Position numbers and translations under genes: made by a program
From: Acinetobacter amyesii
Lineage (GTDB): Bacteria; Pseudomonadota; Gammaproteobacteria; Pseudomonadales; Moraxellaceae
DNA: 64,000 nt
Assembly: GCF_002018365.1 (NCBI RefSeq)
Contig: NZ_MVKX01000008.1
Span: 124,001 to 188,000, forward strand
Direction: 5' to 3'
The notes under the pieces: generated by a model
Told to the model about the DNA's origin: nothing
Databases searched by the model: none
Seen by the model: only the letters and a program-made list of their open reading frames with translations
Shown here: positions 36,828-45,017 of the stretch, in pieces
Position numbering within the stretch: position 1 is the first letter of the stretch
How the letters are laid out: each line of letters opens with the position of its first letter

Positions 36828-37721
36828 ATGACAACGCTGACTCAAGACCTCATCCAATTATTATCTGTAGTACCCAAAGATCAGGGCTACTTTTTAGCAC
36901 AAAGTAAACCTCTGTTTGGTGACCATATTTTTGGTGGACAATTACTTGCTCAGAGCATAGTCAGTGCATCCTTTACCTGTACACTCCCACTCCACTCTTT
37001 ACATGCCAACTTTATTTCTGCGGGTCTTGCAAATTATCCCGTATTATTTAAAGTCGAAAATTTACGTGATAGCCATAGTTTTTCCACTCGACAAGTGACC
37101 GCCATACAGCATGGCAAACCAATATATATGGTGATGTTGTCCTATATGAATAACGAAATGGGTATGCAGTATCAAATACCTGAACCAGATCTGATCCAAC
37201 AGTTTCCACCAAGTAAGCTCAAAGAGGAGCAATTCTATAAAGCACAAATCCAATCATCTATTTCACCTGAATATCTATCCACATTTTTACAGCCTTTTCA
37301 GCTTATATCTAAACCAATTGAATACGTGCTGACAGATTTTCCACTGTCCGATAAAGCTTCTGTCTTAAATCAAAATCAATATGCAGAATATTTAAAACTC
37401 CATGATGCCTTGGATGCACAATTTGACCAACTTCATATACATCAAGCCATTGCAGCATATTATTCAGACTATAATTTATATTCAACGGCGCTCAAAACTC
37501 ATGGTTTAAATTATCTGTCTCCTGAACTCATCGCAACCAGCCTTGATCATTCGATGTATTTTCATCATGCCTTTAGGGTAGATGATTGGGTTTTCTATGA
37601 AATGAATACCACCCGAACCTCCCAATCACGTGGGCTTACTCATGGGCAAATGTGGCAAAATGGAAAATTAGTTGCAAGTACTACACAAGAAAACTTAATG
37701 CGTTATACAGGCAAATCTTGA
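36828..37721 (+). CDS. tesB: Acyl-CoA thioesterase II (TesB-like)
   Basis: 297 residues, a double hotdog-fold thioesterase. 'FGGQLLAQSIVSAS' and 'LHSLHANFISAG' in the first half and 'ATSLDHSMYFHHAFRVDDW' with 'SRGLTHGQMW' in the second match TesB; the Asp of 'LDHSMYFH' and the following Thr/Gln residues form its active site. It hydrolyses medium- and long-chain acyl-CoA. The start has no obvious ribosome-binding site. Confidence 0.9.
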   Translation: MTTLTQDLIQLLSVVPKDQGYFLAQSKPLFGDHIFGGQLLAQSIVSASFTCTLPLHSLHANFISAGLANYPVLFKVENLRDSHSFSTRQVTAIQHGKPIYMVMLSYMNNEMGMQYQIPEPDLIQQFPPSKLKEEQFYKAQIQSSISPEYLSTFLQPFQLISKPIEYVLTDFPLSDKASVLNQNQYAEYLKLHDALDAQFDQLHIHQAIAAYYSDYNLYSTALKTHGLNYLSPELIATSLDHSMYFHHAFRVDDWVFYEMNTTRTSQSRGLTHGQMWQNGKLVASTTQENLMRYTGKS

Positions 37722-37811: not shown

Positions 37812-38447
37812 ATGCCTTCGATCTACCAGCTTAAGCCTGCATTTCAAAACTTACTGCGACCTTTGGTTAAATCACTTCATCATCTTGGTATTACAGCAAA
37901 TCAAGTAACACTACTGGCAATGTTCATTTCGCTAGCTGTAGCATTTTTTATTTATATCTATTTCTCTCACAACGGTATTGGCATTTTACTGTTGATTTTC
38001 CCCGTGTGGATGCTTATTCGAATGGGCTTCAATGCCATAGATGGCATGCTGGCACGTGAGTTCAACCAACAATCCAAACTCGGTGCTTTTTATAATGAAT
38101 TATGTGATGTGATTTCCGACTCAGCACTCTATTTTAGTTTAATTTGTTTTGCTTTTATTCAAGCCGAACTGCTAATTTTGACCTGTTTTCTCGCCATACT
38201 TGCTGAATATACAGGTGTGATGGCGCCATTACTGGGTCAAGAACGTCGTTACGATGGTCCAATGGGAAAAAGTGACCGTGCTTTTGTATTTAGCATCATC
38301 TGTATCGTGATCGTGACTTCTTCTATATTTAACTTCGGTTTAAATACACTGTCTCTTATCTGTAATTGTATTTTGATTATTATCATCTTTTTATTATTTA
38401 TCACGATTTATAACCGCATTAAAAATAGCATTATCAACCCACAATAA
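37812..38447 (+). CDS. ynbA: CDP-alcohol phosphatidyltransferase-family protein (YnbA-like)
   Basis: A 211-residue membrane protein. The CDP-alcohol transferase motif is present in outline but two acidic positions differ: Asn74-x2-Asp77-Gly78-x2-Ala81-Arg82-x8-Gly91-x3-Asn95-x3-Asp99, where the family norm is Asp at 74 and 95. From memory, E. coli YnbA shares these Asn residues, so this is a subfamily trait rather than decay. Enzymes of the family swap CMP of CDP-diacylglycerol for a polar alcohol. It opens a six-gene operon whose other members also act on lipids. The alcohol acceptor is unknown. Confidence 0.8.
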   Translation: MPSIYQLKPAFQNLLRPLVKSLHHLGITANQVTLLAMFISLAVAFFIYIYFSHNGIGILLLIFPVWMLIRMGFNAIDGMLAREFNQQSKLGAFYNELCDVISDSALYFSLICFAFIQAELLILTCFLAILAEYTGVMAPLLGQERRYDGPMGKSDRAFVFSIICIVIVTSSIFNFGLNTLSLICNCILIIIIFLLFITIYNRIKNSIINPQ

Positions 38448-38494
38448 ATTTCATTTTTGATCGTCAGTCGATTCATTATTTTGAGAACAACACA

Positions 38495-40249
38495 ATGTAT
38501 AACAATACTCAGCATACCTTTACGAGCCATGATGGAACATCCTTGTTTTATCAACACTGGGAAAATAGCAATTTAAAAAACAACCGCAAGAAAAAAGCAG
38601 TGATTTTATTTCATCGTGGCCATGAACATTCGGGACGAATGGCGCATTTGGTCAATGAATTGAATTTGCCTGATTTTGATTTTTTCGCTTGGGATGCGCG
38701 AGGACACGGTAATACACCCGGTGAACGTGGTGATGCTCCTAGTTTTTCCGCATGCGTTCAAGACATTCAATATTTTGTTCAGCATATTGAACAGACTTAC
38801 CAAATCCGATCAGAAAATATAGCAATTGTAGCTCAAAGCGTTGGCGCTGTTTTAGCCGCGACATGGGTGCATGATTATGCCCCTAAAATCCGTGCTTTAT
38901 GCCTTGCCTCGCCTGCATTTGACATCAAACTCTATGTGCCTTTTGCAAAACCAGGCTTAACACTCCTCAACAAATTCGCTGGCAACTTTTTTATTAATAG
39001 TTATGTCAAAGCCAAAATGTTGACGCACGATACTGCACGTGCGCAGAGTTATGACACTGACCCGCAAATCGCTCGGGCCATATCAGTCCGGATGCTGCTG
39101 GGTCTATATGCAGCGTCAGATCGAATCGTTAAAGATGCACAAAATATTTTTGTTCCTACTCAAGTCTTATGTTCAGGATCTGACTTCGTGGTGCATCAAA
39201 AACCACAATTGGCGTTTTATCAAAAACTCCCACATCCAATGAAGGAATTTCACGTCTTAGACGGTTTTTATCATGATACTTTGGGTGAAAAACATCGAAA
39301 AATCGCCACAGATAAAATCCATCGCTTTATTCAACAATGTTTTAAACAACCATATTCCGCACCTAAACTTTTAGATGCCGATAAAATTGGCCCAAGCTGT
39401 GCAGTTGCTGAAACTTTAAGTTCAACGCTTCCAAAACATTCTTTAAAACATGCATTTTGGAGCTTAACCAAACAAAATCTTAAAATTGGTAGTCTCTTTT
39501 CCAAGGGTTTAAAAATTGGTGAAGTGACAGGATATGACTCTGGCAGCACCTTAGATTTTGTCTATCGTGATCAATCAGAAAGCCAAAATGCTCTCGGTAA
39601 AATCATCGATCGACAATATTTAAATGCGATCGGTTGGCGTGGTATTCGCGTTAGAAAACAAAATATTGAAGCATTATTAACGAAATATGTCTCTAAATTA
39701 AATGATGCTCAACACGCAGTACGGATTATGGATATTGCAGCAGGCCATGGCCGATATATTTTAGATGCCGTACAAAAACTGCCTGAGCAGCCTGAATCCA
39801 TCCTGCTCAGAGACTATAGCTCGATCAATGTACAAGCGGGTCAAGCAATGATTGAGCAAAGAGGTTTTAGCCAGATTGCCAAATTTGTAGAAGCGGATGC
39901 ATTTGATACCACTTCTTTAGCCAGTGTTGAACCTAAACCCACTCTAGCCGTGGTCTCAGGTTTATACGAATTATTTAGTGATAATGATTTACTTAGACAG
40001 TCCTTATCCGGCTTAAGCCAGGCCATTGAGAAAGATGGTTATCTCATCTACACAGGTCAAATTTGGCATCCGCAACAAGAGTTTATCGCCCGTGCTCTGA
40101 CCTCACATCGCCAAGGAGATGCATGGGTCATGCGTTTACGCTCACAAGCAGAAATGGATGCCCTGGTTGAGCAAGCAGGATTCAAGAAAATCGATCAAGT
40201 TATTGATGAGTTTGGTATTTTCACCGTTTCCGTTGCACAAAAAATTTAA
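38495..40249 (+). CDS. ynbC: Alpha/beta hydrolase - methyltransferase fusion (YnbC-like)
   Basis: 584 residues in two domains. The N-terminal part (about 1-285) is a monoacylglycerol-lipase-like hydrolase: 'DARGHGNTPGERG' and nucleophile Ser115 in 'VAQSVGAV', then 'ASPAFDIKLYVPFA' and a closing 'GFYHDTLGE' with the His. The C-terminal part (about 370-584) is a class I SAM methyltransferase with 'MDIAAGHGR' (412-420). The same fusion is encoded by E. coli ynbC. Likely jobs are trimming an acyl chain and methylating a lipid or its head group. It lies 48 bases after the YnbA-like gene. Confidence 0.8.
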   Translation: MYNNTQHTFTSHDGTSLFYQHWENSNLKNNRKKKAVILFHRGHEHSGRMAHLVNELNLPDFDFFAWDARGHGNTPGERGDAPSFSACVQDIQYFVQHIEQTYQIRSENIAIVAQSVGAVLAATWVHDYAPKIRALCLASPAFDIKLYVPFAKPGLTLLNKFAGNFFINSYVKAKMLTHDTARAQSYDTDPQIARAISVRMLLGLYAASDRIVKDAQNIFVPTQVLCSGSDFVVHQKPQLAFYQKLPHPMKEFHVLDGFYHDTLGEKHRKIATDKIHRFIQQCFKQPYSAPKLLDADKIGPSCAVAETLSSTLPKHSLKHAFWSLTKQNLKIGSLFSKGLKIGEVTGYDSGSTLDFVYRDQSESQNALGKIIDRQYLNAIGWRGIRVRKQNIEALLTKYVSKLNDAQHAVRIMDIAAGHGRYILDAVQKLPEQPESILLRDYSSINVQAGQAMIEQRGFSQIAKFVEADAFDTTSLASVEPKPTLAVVSGLYELFSDNDLLRQSLSGLSQAIEKDGYLIYTGQIWHPQQEFIARALTSHRQGDAWVMRLRSQAEMDALVEQAGFKKIDQVIDEFGIFTVSVAQKI

Positions 40250-40267
40250 GCTTGGACGGTCAATCTT

Positions 40268-41620
40268 ATGCATAAACTGGATACGGAAACAGGAACTTGG
40301 AAATACGGCCTACTGTGTTTGGCATTTCTGGCACCTTTTTTCTTCTTAAGTTATGGTTTTGCCAATCAATACGCTGCTGGCTTAGCTTCTGTTCCTATTA
40401 TCGTCTTTGAATGGGAAAAATATATTCCACTTTGGCCATGGAGTATTGTGCCTTATTGGTCGATTGATCTGTTCTATGGATTGTCTTTATTACTTTGTTG
40501 GAATAAGTTTGAATTAAAACAACATGTCCTGCGACTATTTTCGGCACAAATCCTTTCAATCAGCTGTTTTCTACTTTTTCCGCTACGCTTTAGCTTTGAA
40601 CGCCCCGAACTCACAGGTTTTTTCGGGTTGTGGTTTGATGTCTTGATGGGTTTTGATAAACCCTTCAATCAAGCACCTTCCCTGCACATTGTACTACTGG
40701 TGATTCTTTGGGATTTTTACCGTCGGCATAGCAAAGGCAAACTAAAATATCTGGTAGATGGTTGGTCCTTTTTGATCGGTCTCTCGGTTCTAAGCACTTG
40801 GCAGCACCATTTTATAGATATCCCAACGGGTTTATTGGTCGGCGCCTTATGTTTATGGCTTTTCCCGATGGCTGGCTCTGCGCCATGGGTTCAAAATAAA
40901 CAAAGTCGGCTAAGTTTAAAGCACATTAAAATCGGCATCCTTTATCTGTTTGCTGCCTTATTTTGTAGCGCAATCGCACATGCAAAAGGTTGGTGGCTTT
41001 GGCTGCTCTATCCTGCAAGCAGTCTGCTTTTAGTTTCGTTTGCATATTTATTCAATCGCCCCCATTTTTTTCAAAAACTCAGTCATGGTGATATGACCAT
41101 TGCTGCAAAAATATTGTTTGCGCCTTACTTTGTATTTGCTTGGATCAATAGCCGAATCTGGACCTATCGCCATCCAGAAGATTCTAAAATCATCAAAATC
41201 AATCAGAGTTATATTTATTTAGGTCGCTATCCGTCCAAACAGGTCATGCAACAATATGATGCTTTACTCGATTGTTGCGCAGAATTACCCACTTATCCAA
41301 AGTGCTCCTATGCTCAAAACTTGAGTTTAGACCTGATTCCTTTACAGGCCAATCAGCTGCATAACGCTGTAGAGTCTTTAGAACTACTCTTGAAATCTAA
41401 CAACAATGATGAAGCACAAAACATCTTGGTCTTCTGTGCTTTGGGATATTCACGAAGTAGTGCTGTAGTTGCCGCATTATTATTGAAACAACATCCTGAA
41501 TATTCAGTCGAAGATGTTTTACGAATTATTCGCCATAACCGTCCTTGGGTTGTTCTTAAAGCACCGCAAATAAAACATTTAAATACATATCGTTTGAAAC
41601 TTAAAGGACTTGCACCATGA
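40268..41620 (+). CDS. ynbD: PAP2 - dual-specificity phosphatase fusion, membrane protein (YnbD-like)
   Basis: 450 residues. The first 300 carry several hydrophobic helices with a PAP2-like active site ('QAPSLHIVLL' near residue 139 and 'STWQHHFIDIPTG' near 180), as in inositol-phosphorylceramide-synthase-type lipid phosphatases. The C-terminal 140 residues form a dual-specificity-like phosphatase with Cys390-x5-Arg396 ('FCALGYSRSS'). E. coli YnbD has the same two-phosphatase layout. It could remove phosphate from a PGP-like or PIP-like intermediate. The start lies 19 bases after the hydrolase gene and the stop overlaps the next gene by four bases. Confidence 0.8.
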   Translation: MHKLDTETGTWKYGLLCLAFLAPFFFLSYGFANQYAAGLASVPIIVFEWEKYIPLWPWSIVPYWSIDLFYGLSLLLCWNKFELKQHVLRLFSAQILSISCFLLFPLRFSFERPELTGFFGLWFDVLMGFDKPFNQAPSLHIVLLVILWDFYRRHSKGKLKYLVDGWSFLIGLSVLSTWQHHFIDIPTGLLVGALCLWLFPMAGSAPWVQNKQSRLSLKHIKIGILYLFAALFCSAIAHAKGWWLWLLYPASSLLLVSFAYLFNRPHFFQKLSHGDMTIAAKILFAPYFVFAWINSRIWTYRHPEDSKIIKINQSYIYLGRYPSKQVMQQYDALLDCCAELPTYPKCSYAQNLSLDLIPLQANQLHNAVESLELLLKSNNNDEAQNILVFCALGYSRSSAVVAALLLKQHPEYSVEDVLRIIRHNRPWVVLKAPQIKHLNTYRLKLKGLAP

Positions 41621-42045
41621 ATTTACAACTTGTGGTGCTGTCAAAGTTGTTGCAATCTACCACAGGGTTGCTCATCTCAGCTTATGTGGCAGCGATTCTC
41701 ACGCTCTGGCTCATCATCCAGTTTGGCAATGTGATGCTATTCGATTTGCTATATGTATTAATTTGTCTAGTGTTGCTCGGAATACAACATTATTTAAGCT
41801 TGAGAATCAAATTTGATTCGGCACTTTTAGCCACTGTCGCTGAATGCAGCCAAACTCAAAGCCTAGAACAAACCACCAAAGAGTTGGACTTAAGTTTAAT
41901 TAACCTAAAATTAATGCCTGCAAATAAATGTGGTCGTGCATGGGAGCTACGTGAATTAGGTTGTCTAGCTTTATTTAAATTGCAGATCGTAGTCCTTTGC
42001 TTGCAATACTTCGCTTTCATCTGCATATTTTTACTGTATAAATAA
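41617..42045 (+). CDS. Uncharacterised membrane protein in the Ynb-like operon
   Basis: 142 residues with hydrophobic helices near 15-35 and 40-60, a polar middle and a last helix at about 118-140. I do not recognise a family. It overlaps the phosphatase gene by four bases and is followed 20 bases later by the acyltransferase gene, so it belongs to the operon. It may be an accessory subunit that holds the enzymes together; that is inference. Confidence 0.65.
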   Translation: MNLQLVVLSKLLQSTTGLLISAYVAAILTLWLIIQFGNVMLFDLLYVLICLVLLGIQHYLSLRIKFDSALLATVAECSQTQSLEQTTKELDLSLINLKLMPANKCGRAWELRELGCLALFKLQIVVLCLQYFAFICIFLLYK

Positions 42046-42064
42046 TTCACAATAATTTGAAGCT

Positions 42065-42757
42065 ATGCCAAATCCATTAGACACTTCAGGGAATGCTCAC
42101 TCACCAATGAAAGGTAATTTTTTAAGCCGTTCAATTGCTCGCTATATTGCCTTTCTCACTCGTCGTGGTGCGCGGCTGCTCACGGGTGCGCGGAGTCTCT
42201 GGGTCGGGTGCAAACCGGTTATGAAACAGCGTATTTATTATGCAAATCATAATAGCCATATCGATTTTATTTTGCTTTGGTCATCACTGCCGACAGATCT
42301 CAGACGGAAGACACGTCCTGTAGCAGCATCGGATTATTGGTTAAAAGATGGCTTTCGACGTTTTCTCATTCAAGACACATTTACTGGCGTCACTATTCAG
42401 CGAAATCGAGAGCAAAATCAAGACCCCTTAGAACCGATCAAAACCGTATTAGCACAAGGTGACTCGATTATTTTCTTTCCTGAGGGTACTCGAAATTTAA
42501 ATGATGACGTTGAATTATTAGAGTTTAAAAGCGGCTTATTTCATCTCAAAAATCAATTTCCTGATGTTGAAATCGTACCGGTATGGATCTCAAATTTAAA
42601 ACGTGTCATGCCTAAAGGCGCGCTTATACCATTGCCATTATTATCTACCGTTATTTTTGGTAAGCCTTTAGAAGCCCATAATGAACACAGTAAAACTGAG
42701 TTTTTAAACTACGCTCAGGATGAATTACTCAAATTAAAAGCATTGGAGTATCAATAA
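42065..42757 (+). CDS. 1-acyl-sn-glycerol-3-phosphate acyltransferase-like (PlsC family)
   Basis: 230 residues with the PlsC signatures: 'ANHNSHIDF' near residue 60 (H-x4-D) and 'FPEGTRN' near 138, plus 'VPVWISNL' later. It would acylate a lysophospholipid or lysophosphatidic-acid-like acceptor. It overlaps the CdsA-like gene by one base (TAATG). This gene is an addition compared with the E. coli ynbABCD set. Confidence 0.87.
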   Translation: MPNPLDTSGNAHSPMKGNFLSRSIARYIAFLTRRGARLLTGARSLWVGCKPVMKQRIYYANHNSHIDFILLWSSLPTDLRRKTRPVAASDYWLKDGFRRFLIQDTFTGVTIQRNREQNQDPLEPIKTVLAQGDSIIFFPEGTRNLNDDVELLEFKSGLFHLKNQFPDVEIVPVWISNLKRVMPKGALIPLPLLSTVIFGKPLEAHNEHSKTEFLNYAQDELLKLKALEYQ

Positions 42758-43701
42758 TGGAATTCACCAATGCGCAAATGACCTATGTATTGTTTGGTAT
42801 CTTTGCGGTTATTTTGATTATTGCCTCAACCATTGGCTCCATCTTAAAATTTAAAGCGGGTTATGCACCTGCGCCAGTTATCGACAATTTAAATGCGCGG
42901 ATCAATGCATGGTGGGTCATGTTGTTGGTACTTGGTGTAGCAATTTCATTAGGCAAAATCGCCTTTGTGATCCTGTTTGCGTTGATTTCACTCTTTGCTT
43001 TACGTGAATTTATTAGTTTACTGCCGACCCGTCGCGGTGATTATCTTCCTTTGCTGATCGCTTTTTATTTTGTCATCCCTTACCAGTATTACTTGGTGTA
43101 TATCGACTGGTACGGGCTATATTCTATTTTTATTCCGCTGTATGTGTTTCTTCTTATCCCTATCGCTACACTCAAAGCCGAAGATACCACGCGTTTTTTG
43201 GAACGTAGCTCAAAAATTCAATGGGGTCTGATGATCAGCGTATTCTGTATTTCGCATGTGCCTGCGCTATTAAATCTTAAACTTCCCGGATTTGAAGGTG
43301 AAAAAATTTGGCTAGCGATCTGGCTGATCATGGTGGTACAAGCCTCCGATGTCTTGCAATATGTCTGTGGCAAGCTATTCGGAAAACACAAAGTCGCACC
43401 AATACTTTCACCATCTAAGACCGTTGAAGGTTTAATCGGAGGCATTGCTTTAGCCACTGCACTAGGTGTTGCTATGTCATGGCTTACACCCTTCAGCTAT
43501 CTACAGGCTGCATGTATTGGCTTTATTGTTTGTATATTTGGTTTCTTTGGTGGTCTTGTCATGTCAGCCATTAAACGCGATCGTGGTGTAAAAGATTGGG
43601 GACAACTCATCCAAGGCCATGGTGGCATGCTCGACCGAATTGATTCAATCTGCTTTTCTGCACCGATTTTTTTCCACATTTTGCGCTATTGGTGGTCTTA
43701 A
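42757..43701 (+). CDS. ynbB: Phosphatidate cytidylyltransferase-family protein (YnbB/CdsA-like)
   Basis: A 314-residue multi-helix membrane protein with the CdsA signature 'SPSKTVEGLIGG' near residue 217 and 'SAIKRDRGVKDWGQLIQGHG' and 'DRIDS' near the end. CdsA makes CDP-diacylglycerol from phosphatidate and CTP, the substrate of the YnbA-like protein in the same operon. The housekeeping cdsA normally lies beside uppS and dxr, which are not here, so this is a paralogue. It is the last gene of the operon. Confidence 0.87.
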   Translation: MEFTNAQMTYVLFGIFAVILIIASTIGSILKFKAGYAPAPVIDNLNARINAWWVMLLVLGVAISLGKIAFVILFALISLFALREFISLLPTRRGDYLPLLIAFYFVIPYQYYLVYIDWYGLYSIFIPLYVFLLIPIATLKAEDTTRFLERSSKIQWGLMISVFCISHVPALLNLKLPGFEGEKIWLAIWLIMVVQASDVLQYVCGKLFGKHKVAPILSPSKTVEGLIGGIALATALGVAMSWLTPFSYLQAACIGFIVCIFGFFGGLVMSAIKRDRGVKDWGQLIQGHGGMLDRIDSICFSAPIFFHILRYWWS

Positions 43702-43761: not shown

Positions 43762-43794
43762 AAAAAATCCCAAGCAAACAAGCTTGGGATTCTT
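43762..43794. terminator. Terminator between the Ynb-like operon and alkM
   Basis: AATCCCAAGC and GCTTGGGATT arms with a 6-base loop; a clean T-run on the minus strand suits alkM, a weaker one on the plus strand the lipid operon. Confidence 0.8.
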
Positions 43795-43811: not shown

Positions 43812-45017
43812 TTAAACGTCTGAAACCGCAAACTTTTTAAAAATACTTGCACGACGTTTAGGATGAATATTGGCTTTAGTTAAATCACCTTGATAGTGAT
43901 CATAGACACGTTTATCCATCATCTTAAACCAAATAGAGGGTACTAAAGCAGGAATTAGCATAGTGGCATAGCCGCTAGGCAACTCTGGCGCTTCATCAAA
44001 ATGTCTTAAAGCCTGAAATGGACGAGTCGGATACGCATGATGGTCTGAATGTCGCTGTAATTGATACAAAAATAGATTGGTCACAATATTATTGTTATTC
44101 CAACTATGTTCAGGCATGGTTCGCGCATAACTTCCATCCGCTTTTTGCTCACGCTTCAGGCCATAATGTTCAATATAATTAATTATTTCAAAAAGGCTGA
44201 TTCCATAAAAGGCCTGTGTAACTAAATACGGTGTCACGCCTTTACCAAACATTTTCAGCATCGATGCATGAAAACCTGCACTCATCGCCCAACCATGAAA
44301 CAGTTCATTCTCCTTCGAAAAGAAACTTAAACCTTTACGTTTTAAACGTTGCTTTTCAATCTGCACCGCCGATTTAATTCCACCAAATACAGTGCGTGGC
44401 CAAAACTCATAAAAGGTTTCACCCATTTTTGAAGATGCAGGATCTTCAGGCGTTGCCGCACGTTTATGGTGCCCATAAGGATGTTCAATGCGGAAATGGC
44501 TATAACCTAAAGGTGCGAGCGTCGCATGTGCCCAGTAATGGTCTTTTTTATGAGGTCGATGGCAAAGTTCATGTGCTGTATTTACACCGACGCCATTGAT
44601 GGCGCCCATCGAAATCCCAAGCAGAACTTGATCTAATAATGAAACATCTTTACGGGTAACCACATAGCCAGCAAAAGCATTCGCTGCCATTTGCAGTGGA
44701 ATAAATAGTTTGACGATCCGATCATAATAGGGATCATTCACTAAAACTTTGATGTCATCATCTGTCGGGTTATTGGCATCATCACCGATCAGTGCATCCA
44801 GTGCAGGAATAATGACATGCAGTAGAAGCGGCCCGCCCATGGCAAATAGTTTTTTTGTCGGTTTTGGACCAAAATGATAACCCGCCAAGATCCCCATACC
44901 AATGACTGGTAAACCTGGACTCAATAGCCAACCATAACGTTTTTTATCTAAAACACTACCGATTTTGCTTTCTAACTGAGCGAGCTGCTGTTCATTTAAT
45001 TTTACTGGTGCATTCAT
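43812..45017 (-). CDS. alkM: Alkane 1-monooxygenase
   Basis: A 401-residue integral membrane di-iron enzyme that hydroxylates n-alkanes at the terminal carbon with rubredoxin as electron donor. All histidine boxes are present: 'HELCHR' (149-154), 'HFRIEHPYGHHK' (174-185), 'EHYGLKRE' (283-290) and 'LQRHSDHHA' (320-328), the last typical of AlkB/AlkM. No rubredoxin gene lies beside it, as in Acinetobacter where rubA/rubB are elsewhere. The divergent AraC-family gene is probably its activator. Confidence 0.93.
   Translation of the reverse strand: MNAPVKLNEQQLAQLESKIGSVLDKKRYGWLLSPGLPVIGMGILAGYHFGPKPTKKLFAMGGPLLLHVIIPALDALIGDDANNPTDDDIKVLVNDPYYDRIVKLFIPLQMAANAFAGYVVTRKDVSLLDQVLLGISMGAINGVGVNTAHELCHRPHKKDHYWAHATLAPLGYSHFRIEHPYGHHKRAATPEDPASSKMGETFYEFWPRTVFGGIKSAVQIEKQRLKRKGLSFFSKENELFHGWAMSAGFHASMLKMFGKGVTPYLVTQAFYGISLFEIINYIEHYGLKREQKADGSYARTMPEHSWNNNNIVTNLFLYQLQRHSDHHAYPTRPFQALRHFDEAPELPSGYATMLIPALVPSIWFKMMDKRVYDHYQGDLTKANIHPKRRASIFKKFAVSDV

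What the first reader, a model, noticed from the sequence alone, without database searches (positions are those of the whole stretch)
37812..43701. Six-gene Ynb-like operon that looks like a complete pathway for an uncharacterised phospholipid
Seen: a CdsA-like cytidylyltransferase, CDP-alcohol phosphatidyltransferase, PAP2-DSP double phosphatase, hydrolase-methyltransferase fusion and PlsC-like acyltransferase, plus one unknown membrane protein. Gaps are 48 and 20 bases or less, or genes overlap. Known: E. coli ynbABCD has four of these types in a different order, with no settled product. Inference: CdsA-like makes CDP-lipid, YnbA-like adds an alcohol phosphate, the phosphatase removes the phosphate, and PlsC-like, hydrolase and methyltransferase remodel acyl chains or head group. 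That is a self-contained route to a modified lipid.
Basis: partly seen in the sequence, partly recalled or inferred. Interest (0 to 1): 0.72.

Follow-up and report, generated by a model that had tools for sequence, protein, structure and literature searches.

The report
Private lipid-making operon in Acinetobacter
Six neighbouring genes form a conserved, so far uncharacterised bacterial membrane-lipid pathway, built around an enzyme whose metal-binding site has been changed in a way not expected for its family.

Summary
The six genes are there as described and form a real, conserved unit: all six occur in the same order in 77 of 80 related loci from Acinetobacter, Pseudomonas and Diaphorobacter, and in rearranged orders on an alpha- and a betaproteobacterial plasmid. 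Four are orthologues of E. coli ynbABCD, whose product is unsettled.

(1) Core and add-on: the CDP-alcohol enzyme (YnbA), CdsA-like YnbB and PlsC-like acyltransferase also occur as a three-gene set without the others (8 loci here); the hydrolase-methyltransferase (YnbC), double phosphatase (YnbD) and small membrane protein come on top. (2) YnbA lacks two of the eight 'absolutely conserved' residues of its family: metal-binding Asp1 and Asp3 are Asn in 83 of 83 aligned rows. A sister family with the same change also sits beside YnbB and PlsC (13 of 14 loci).

Best reading: a dedicated route to a minor phospholipid (acyl transfer, CDP-lipid, head-group transfer, dephosphorylation), then remodelling. 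The head group is probably not inositol. YnbD's PAP2 domain may be of the head-group-transferase kind (fold match to sphingomyelin and inositol-phosphorylceramide synthases, inconclusive). Product and chemistry remain unproven.

The parts
37812..38447 (+). YnbA-type CDP-alcohol phosphotransferase (211 aa); Asn74 and Asn95 in place of metal ligands Asp1 and Asp3; Asp77 (D2), Asp99 (D4), Arg156 and Arg202 kept
38495..40249 (+). YnbC: monoglyceride-lipase-like alpha/beta hydrolase fused to Methyltransf_20 methyltransferase (584 aa); presumed triad Ser115, Asp230, His260 invariant in 86 of 86 rows
40268..41620 (+). YnbD: PAP2 domain (PSLH140, His180xxxAsp184) fused to a dual-specificity phosphatase (Cys390x5Arg396), 450 aa
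41617..42045 (+). U: 142-aa helical protein of unknown family, predicted membrane protein by its hydrophobic helices (read by eye); conserved Arg63, Asp67, Asp91, Arg107, Arg112 in a 20-row alignment
42065..42757 (+). P: PlsC-like acyltransferase (230 aa), Hx4D and FPEGTR motifs
42757..43701 (+). YnbB: CdsA-like CDP-diacylglycerol synthase (314 aa), CdsA signature kept
43766..43791 (.). terminator-like inverted repeat after the last gene, on both strands, also just after the convergent gene at 43812-45017
   Evidence: consensus match only; such matches are fewer than in shuffles

Best explanation
A dedicated pathway for a minor phospholipid, separate from the housekeeping one. P acylates a lysophosphatidic-acid-like precursor, YnbB activates it to a CDP-lipid, and YnbA moves the phosphatidyl group to a phosphorylated alcohol that is probably not inositol phosphate. 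In the longer version the phosphatase half of YnbD removes the remaining phosphate, the PAP2 half of YnbD moves or removes the head group, and YnbC deacylates and methylates. U is an accessory membrane subunit. Shown: gene content, conservation, domain types, conserved catalytic motifs, core versus add-on pattern, altered YnbA metal site. From the literature: E. coli YnbB makes CDP-DAG in vitro. Inferred: every other reaction, the order of steps, and the product.
For: Six genes in one order in 77 of 80 loci and in other arrangements elsewhere: A divergent in Shinella, P-B divergent in Burkholderia, A-C-D-U-B-P in L152. A+B+P without C, D or U in the stretch in 8 of the 10 genomes that have YnbA but no YnbC. 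27 of 27 YnbC genomes have YnbA. Catalytic motifs of B, P, C and D are kept in the rows aligned, apart from one P row with undetermined letters and one D row with a gap. The own genome has two other CDP-alcohol enzymes (PgsA-like and PssA-like by motif, read by eye) and a second CdsA, so this set is additional. The Arg pair that is thought to bind the acceptor phosphate in PIP synthase (PMC4634129, passages) aligns to Arg156 and Arg202, present in 83 of 83 and in 82 of the 82 rows with a residue there. The residue after Asp4, said to be always Lys or Arg in PIP synthases (PMC6506517, passages), is Val, Ile, Ala, Met or Leu in 83 of 83, and no inositol-phosphate synthase was found in the own genome while 5 of 14 control genomes matched, 3 over the cut-off: hence not inositol phosphate. 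YnbD's phosphatase half matches PTPMT1 (Z 14.0) among many DSPs. A review states that YnbB makes CDP-DAG in vitro (PMC7018664, passages).
Against: YnbA lacks two metal ligands called absolutely conserved, so it may not catalyse the standard reaction. The 8 three-gene loci have no dedicated phosphatase in the stretch, which does not fit a product that must be dephosphorylated unless a housekeeping enzyme does it. Of 22 wider loci, E. coli, L153 and L154 have no P in the stretch, and L144, L145 and L150 have neither B nor P; L150 shows only A and C. All four E. coli genes are in a deletion of viable strain DGF-298 (PMC10652928, passage), so the lipid is dispensable there. No lipid has been observed; the substrate of YnbC is unknown.
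Confidence: 0.6

Rival explanations
1. The operon makes or supports an MPIase-type glycolipid: YnbB forms CDP-DAG, GlcNAc-1-phosphate attacks it to give GlcNAc-PP-DAG, and the other genes process it.
For: YnbB overproduction raises MPIase in E. coli, and CdsA/YnbB are linked to GlcNAc-PP-DAG formation (PMC6362211, passages; PMC10881803, passages). [quoted passage not shown]
Against: MPIase is reported as essential, while the ynbB knockout does not significantly change its level and all four ynb genes are deleted in viable DGF-298. No explanation for the PlsC-like, methyltransferase or phosphatase genes. I did not search for MPIase work in Acinetobacter or Pseudomonas.
Confidence: 0.12
2. YnbA is a pseudoenzyme or regulatory membrane subunit; the real activities are those of YnbB, P, C and D, which remodel ordinary phospholipids (deacylation, reacylation, phosphatase).
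For: Two of four metal-binding aspartates are Asn. C is closest to monoglyceride lipases and P is a PlsC-type acyltransferase, which could be a deacylation-reacylation pair.
Against: D2, both glycines, Ala and D4 (the presumed catalytic base) are invariant in 83 of 83 rows, the nucleotide motif N30xxT33 in the 82 rows with residues there, Arg82 in 81 of 83 (Lys in 2). YnbA stays with B and P in the 8 loci where C, D and U are missing. A dead enzyme would be expected to lose the base as well.
Confidence: 0.15
3. The operon makes a phosphatidylinositol-type lipid, like the PIP synthase to PI to inositol-phosphorylceramide route of other bacteria (route recalled).
For: Best named relatives of YnbA are archaetidylinositol-phosphate and PI-phosphate synthases and the PIP synthase chain 6h53. 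YnbD joins a PTPMT1-like phosphatase to a PAP2 domain whose fold matches IPC synthase.
Against: The NCBIfam matches are below the curated cut-offs (83.6 against 180; 51.9 against 170). No inositol-phosphate synthase match in the own genome. The residue that is Arg and crucial in M. tuberculosis PIP synthase is never basic here.
Confidence: 0.07

Closest known systems
E. coli K-12 ynbABCD (b1408-b1411)
   Same: Orthologues of A, B, C and D at 41, 39, 52 and 40% identity; also one co-directional cluster
   Different: Gene order A-B-C-D instead of A-C-D-U-P-B; no P and no U in the E. coli cluster
Phosphatidylinositol-phosphate synthase (6h53, 6wm5; described for M. tuberculosis in PMC6506517)
   Same: Nearest solved relatives; D2, D4, the nucleotide motif and the phosphate-binding Arg pair align
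   Different: Asn at D1 and D3, Glu where 6h53 has Ala after D3, no basic residue after D4
CdsA (phosphatidate cytidylyltransferase)
   Same: C-terminal signature
   Different: The own second CdsA scores 106.7 bits on the YnbB profile, against 296 to 588 for the YnbB hits, apart from the broken copy in L195 (173)
Sphingomyelin synthase-related protein (8ijq), IPC synthase (9vj4), Aur1-Kei1 (9ivc)
   Same: Fold match of the YnbD PAP2 part, Z 14.1, 13.9 and 13.6 over 203, 187 and 199 residues; His...HisxxxAsp pattern
   Different: Sequence identity 11-12%; fused to a dual-specificity phosphatase; I know of no sphingolipid in these hosts (recalled)
PTPMT1 (3rgq)
   Same: Fold of the YnbD phosphatase half (Z 14.0, 138 residues) and Cx5R motif
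   Different: Residue before Cys is Phe here, Cys in 58 of 84 rows, His in E. coli; other DSPs match as well, so the substrate class is open

Membership tests
YnbABCD operon | Clustered co-directional orthologues of YnbA, YnbB, YnbC and YnbD | tested here: met
   41, 39, 52 and 40% identity to the K-12 proteins
YnbABCD operon | Gene order A-B-C-D without further genes, as in K-12 | tested here: not met
   Window order A-C-D-U-P-B with two extra genes
CDP-alcohol phosphotransferases (PF01066) | Profile match over the curated cut-off | tested here: met
   38.9 bits, cut-off 22
CDP-alcohol phosphotransferases (PF01066) | Eight conserved signature residues D1xxD2GxxAR...GxxxD3xxxD4 | tested here: not met
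   Six of eight; Asn at D1 and D3 in 83 of 83 rows; signature from passages of PMC4634129 and PMC6506517
Phosphatidylinositol-phosphate synthase | Two Arg that bind the acceptor phosphate | tested here: met
   Arg156 and Arg202 by HMMER alignment to 6h53, kept in all rows with a residue there; residue numbers matched by me from that alignment
Phosphatidylinositol-phosphate synthase | Lys or Arg right after D4 | tested here: not met
   Val, Ile, Ala, Met or Leu in 83 of 83
Phosphatidylinositol-phosphate synthase | NCBIfam equivalog cut-off | tested here: not met
   51.9 against 170 bits
CdsA-type cytidylyltransferase | C-terminal signature with KR...KD...HGG..DR.D | tested here: met
   These residues invariant in 83 of 83 rows; Pfam 236.6 bits
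PlsC / 1-acylglycerol-3-phosphate acyltransferase | Hx4D and FPEGTR motifs | tested here: met
   80 rows: His and Asp in 79 (one row X), FPEGTR in 80
PlsC / 1-acylglycerol-3-phosphate acyltransferase | NCBIfam AGP_acyltrn cut-off | tested here: not met
   46.2 against 102.95 bits
Sphingomyelin / IPC synthase type PAP2 transferases | Fold and His-His-Asp triad | tested here: inconclusive
   Three of the 50 listed entries, Z 13.6-14.1, but DSP rows fill the list; a profile search finds phospholipid phosphatase 1 weakly (E 0.0021); Pfam PAP2_3 in 11 and PAP2 in 10 of 17 members
Sphingomyelin / IPC synthase type PAP2 transferases | Head-group transfer activity | not testable with these tools
   needs enzymology
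MPIase biosynthesis | Required for the MPIase level | not testable with these tools
   Published ynbB knockout in E. coli did not significantly change it (PMC6362211, passages)

The most novel reading that the evidence does not exclude
YnbA and its sister family form a separate class of CDP-alcohol enzymes with a rebuilt metal site (Asn at D1 and D3, an acidic residue added next to the second Asn), paired with their own CdsA-like and PlsC-like partners. They would use a nucleophile that needs less metal activation, such as a phosphate group, giving a lipid joined to its head group by a pyrophosphate or another linkage not known to me for this family; YnbD then transfers that head group to a second lipid.
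Probability: 0.12. Interest if true: 0.85.

Novelty: new variant of a known kind. Interest (0 to 1): 0.55.

Why it matters
The ynb genes are in most sequenced E. coli (DNA match in 4579 of 5426 genomes, 4242 of them with at least 80% of the query in one place). Relatives are in 30 of 119 Acinetobacter genomes and in 56 Pseudomonas loci among the best 80 of the scan. Yet the papers I could search gave no product for the operon. The three-gene core is a minimal set to express and assay. The changed YnbA metal site poses a sharp question: does a CDP-alcohol enzyme work without Asp1 and Asp3, and on what acceptor. If a new lipid is found, it adds a membrane component to well-studied bacteria.

Tried and rejected
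TesB-like thioesterase upstream (36828-37721) as a seventh gene: found in only 1 of the 80 loci (L031; E 1e-30 or better), so rejected. Phage origin: no match in the phage collection. Plasmid cargo: 29 of 72,556 plasmid records hold YnbC, 26 of them typed non-mobilizable, and some are of chromosome size, so not a typical mobile element. Identity of U: no Pfam family matched by more than 1 of 12 members (best E 0.0077), no solved relative by profile, confident helical model without a PDB Foldseek match at E 0.001 or better. The viral fold library for YnbD listed mostly dual-specificity phosphatases. PAP2 families other than the three named did not appear's list; that list is filled by DSP rows, so this absence says nothing. 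My first idea that the Asn/Asn signature is unique to Ynb was wrong: 15 of 16 lower-scoring relatives share it, only L217 has the usual aspartates. I also first thought that Glu83 is an acidic residue special to YnbA; 6h53 has Glu there too, so I dropped it. The tree separates the sister family (99/100) and puts the Asn/Asn proteins apart from three outgroup rows (84/93), but it cannot prove one origin because the outgroup branches are very long. Nine weaker YnbA hits in the Acinetobacter sample (63-79 bits) were not fetched. Literature: 10 searches over open-licence PMC papers only; no listing showed a product for the whole operon, and the term 'ynbABCD' found 0 papers. Passages of PMC12419801, PMC9385802 and PMC4951805 held nothing on its function.

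Full report
Observation. The six ORFs and their spacings are as reported and the named protein types are right. The window lies in an Acinetobacter-type genome: 3.4 Mb, and the closest of the 80 named loci is Acinetobacter sp. ANC 5054, 87% identical over YnbC.

Conservation. In 77 of 80 all six genes were found in the order A-C-D-U-P-B; the misses are L048 and L110 (contig ends) and L054 (A. pollinis, no P or B in its locus). These 80 were chosen by similarity to YnbC, so they are close relatives. I therefore looked at 22 wider loci: stretches of 15 of the 27 YnbC genomes and of 3 more (fetched), three plasmid records and E. coli K-12. All six were detected in 14 of 22. The others were: A, C, D, P, B in L113 (U not detected); A, B, C, D in E. 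coli and L154; A, C, D in L144; A, C, D, U in L145; A, C, P, B in L151; A, C, B in L153; A and C in L150. Orders and strands differ between lineages (A divergent in the Shinella plasmid, P and B divergent on a 19-kb Burkholderia plasmid), which argues for a functional link rather than mere inheritance of an order.

Co-occurrence. In a sample of 398 genomes of the phylum, 27 have YnbC at E 1e-20 or better and 37 have strong YnbA (167 bits or more, next lower hit 78). All 27 are among the 37. In Acinetobacter, YnbC and strong YnbA are found in the same 30 of 119 genomes. Shared ancestry inflates such counts; I did not correct for it.

Core and add-on. In the 10 genomes with YnbA but no YnbC, 8 have A, B and P side by side and no C, D or U in the stretch looked at; L195 holds a broken A and a B fragment; L196 holds a divergent A beside a CTP_transf_like protein. 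So A+B+P can stand alone, and C with D (and usually U) is added to it. E. coli shows another selection: it has C and D but no P or U in the cluster.

YnbA active site. Structural papers describe eight absolutely conserved residues, four of them aspartates that hold two metal ions, with the fourth as likely catalytic base (PMC4634129 and PMC6506517, passages). In YnbA the first and third aspartates are Asn: 83 of 83 rows in the first alignment, 22 of 22 in the wider set, five of which repeat genomes of the first, and 9 of the 10 YnbC-less loci; L196 has Ala at the first and Asn at the third position, read by eye. HMMER aligns these positions directly to the aspartates of the PIP synthase chain 6h53. 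The host's own two other CDP-alcohol enzymes keep all four aspartates. The 16 next-best relatives were fetched: 15 have Asn at both places but have lost the Arg of the AR pair; one has the usual aspartates. I fetched wider stretches for 14 of these 15: 13 also have B and P close by, L219 has neither. Thus the changed site goes with private CdsA-like and PlsC-like partners. Glu96, next to the second Asn, is invariant in YnbA (83 of 83) and Glu or Asp in the sister family, where 6h53 has Ala; whether it replaces a lost ligand is a guess.

Acceptor. The two arginines thought to hold the acceptor phosphate in PIP synthase align to Arg156 and Arg202, but the basic residue after D4 is missing in 83 of 83, and the own genome has no inositol-phosphate synthase match. 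I infer a phosphorylated acceptor other than inositol phosphate. This rests on an alignment of 44 bits and is not firm. Against it, the sister family does keep Arg after D4 in 15 of 15 (read by eye), so the two families may differ in acceptor.

YnbD. A model (mean pLDDT 89.4) has two parts. The C-terminal part matches many dual-specificity phosphatases including PTPMT1 (Z 14.0). The N-terminal part matches sphingomyelin synthase-related protein, inositol-phosphorylceramide synthase and Aur1-Kei1 at Z 13.6 to 14.1. For helical proteins such values are only a little above what unrelated bundles reach, and DSP rows fill the list, so the PAP2 subclass is open. Pfam gives PAP2_3 in 11 and PAP2 in 10 of 17 members; a profile search found no IPC or sphingomyelin synthase, its best hit being phospholipid phosphatase 1 (E 0.0021).

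YnbC, P, U. The hydrolase half of YnbC is closest to monoglyceride lipases and keeps Ser, Asp and His in 86 of 86 rows; the residue two before the Ser is Ala in 71 and Gly in 15. P keeps the PlsC motifs but falls below the curated cut-off for 1-acylglycerol-3-phosphate acyltransferases. U is a confident all-helical model without relatives found.

Literature. E. coli YnbB: overproduction raises MPIase, the knockout does not significantly change it, and it cannot replace CdsA (PMC6362211, passages); a review states that it makes CDP-DAG in vitro (PMC7018664, passages). An early guess that YnbA makes phosphatidylcholine was removed from EcoCyc (PMC3781023, passage). A transposon screen for ECA-PG listed ynbB, which the authors say is not necessary for ECA-PG synthesis (PMC8609368, passages). 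ynbA appears in a table of insertion sites of a c-di-GMP screen (PMC13031359, passage). All four genes are in a deletion of DGF-298 (PMC10652928, passage). I found no paper giving a product for the whole operon, within the ten searches named in Tried and rejected.

Verdict. A real, conserved, uncharacterised lipid operon; new variant of a known kind (Ynb). Its core and the altered YnbA site are the parts worth testing.

Noticed in passing
L112:5248-16025: A 19-kb Burkholderia ambifaria plasmid carries all six genes together with cellulose genes bcsB and bcsZ and a short diguanylate cyclase gene.
   Followed up: no
L148:9208-11361: A 717-aa WG-repeat protein sits between YnbC and YnbD in one genome.
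   Followed up: no
L189:858-1397: A VTT-domain-like (DedA-type, below cut-off) membrane protein follows the A-B-P set; a similar-looking protein lies at L190:10536-11219 without a Pfam match at E 0.01.
   Followed up: partly
L196:8240-9564: A very divergent YnbA relative (Ala at D1, Asn at D3, AR lost) lies next to a CTP_transf_like cytidylyltransferase.
   Followed up: partly
window 43812-45017: Convergent fatty-acid-desaturase-family gene (looks like an alkane hydroxylase by eye); a terminator-like repeat lies between it and the operon.
   Followed up: no
L021:11622-16202 matches in E. coli: The five best-ranked E. coli hits have a transposase annotated under the ynb match, so the operon is interrupted in some strains.
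   Followed up: no
L014: YnbC is split by an in-frame TAG in one Acinetobacter genome (G015).
   Followed up: no
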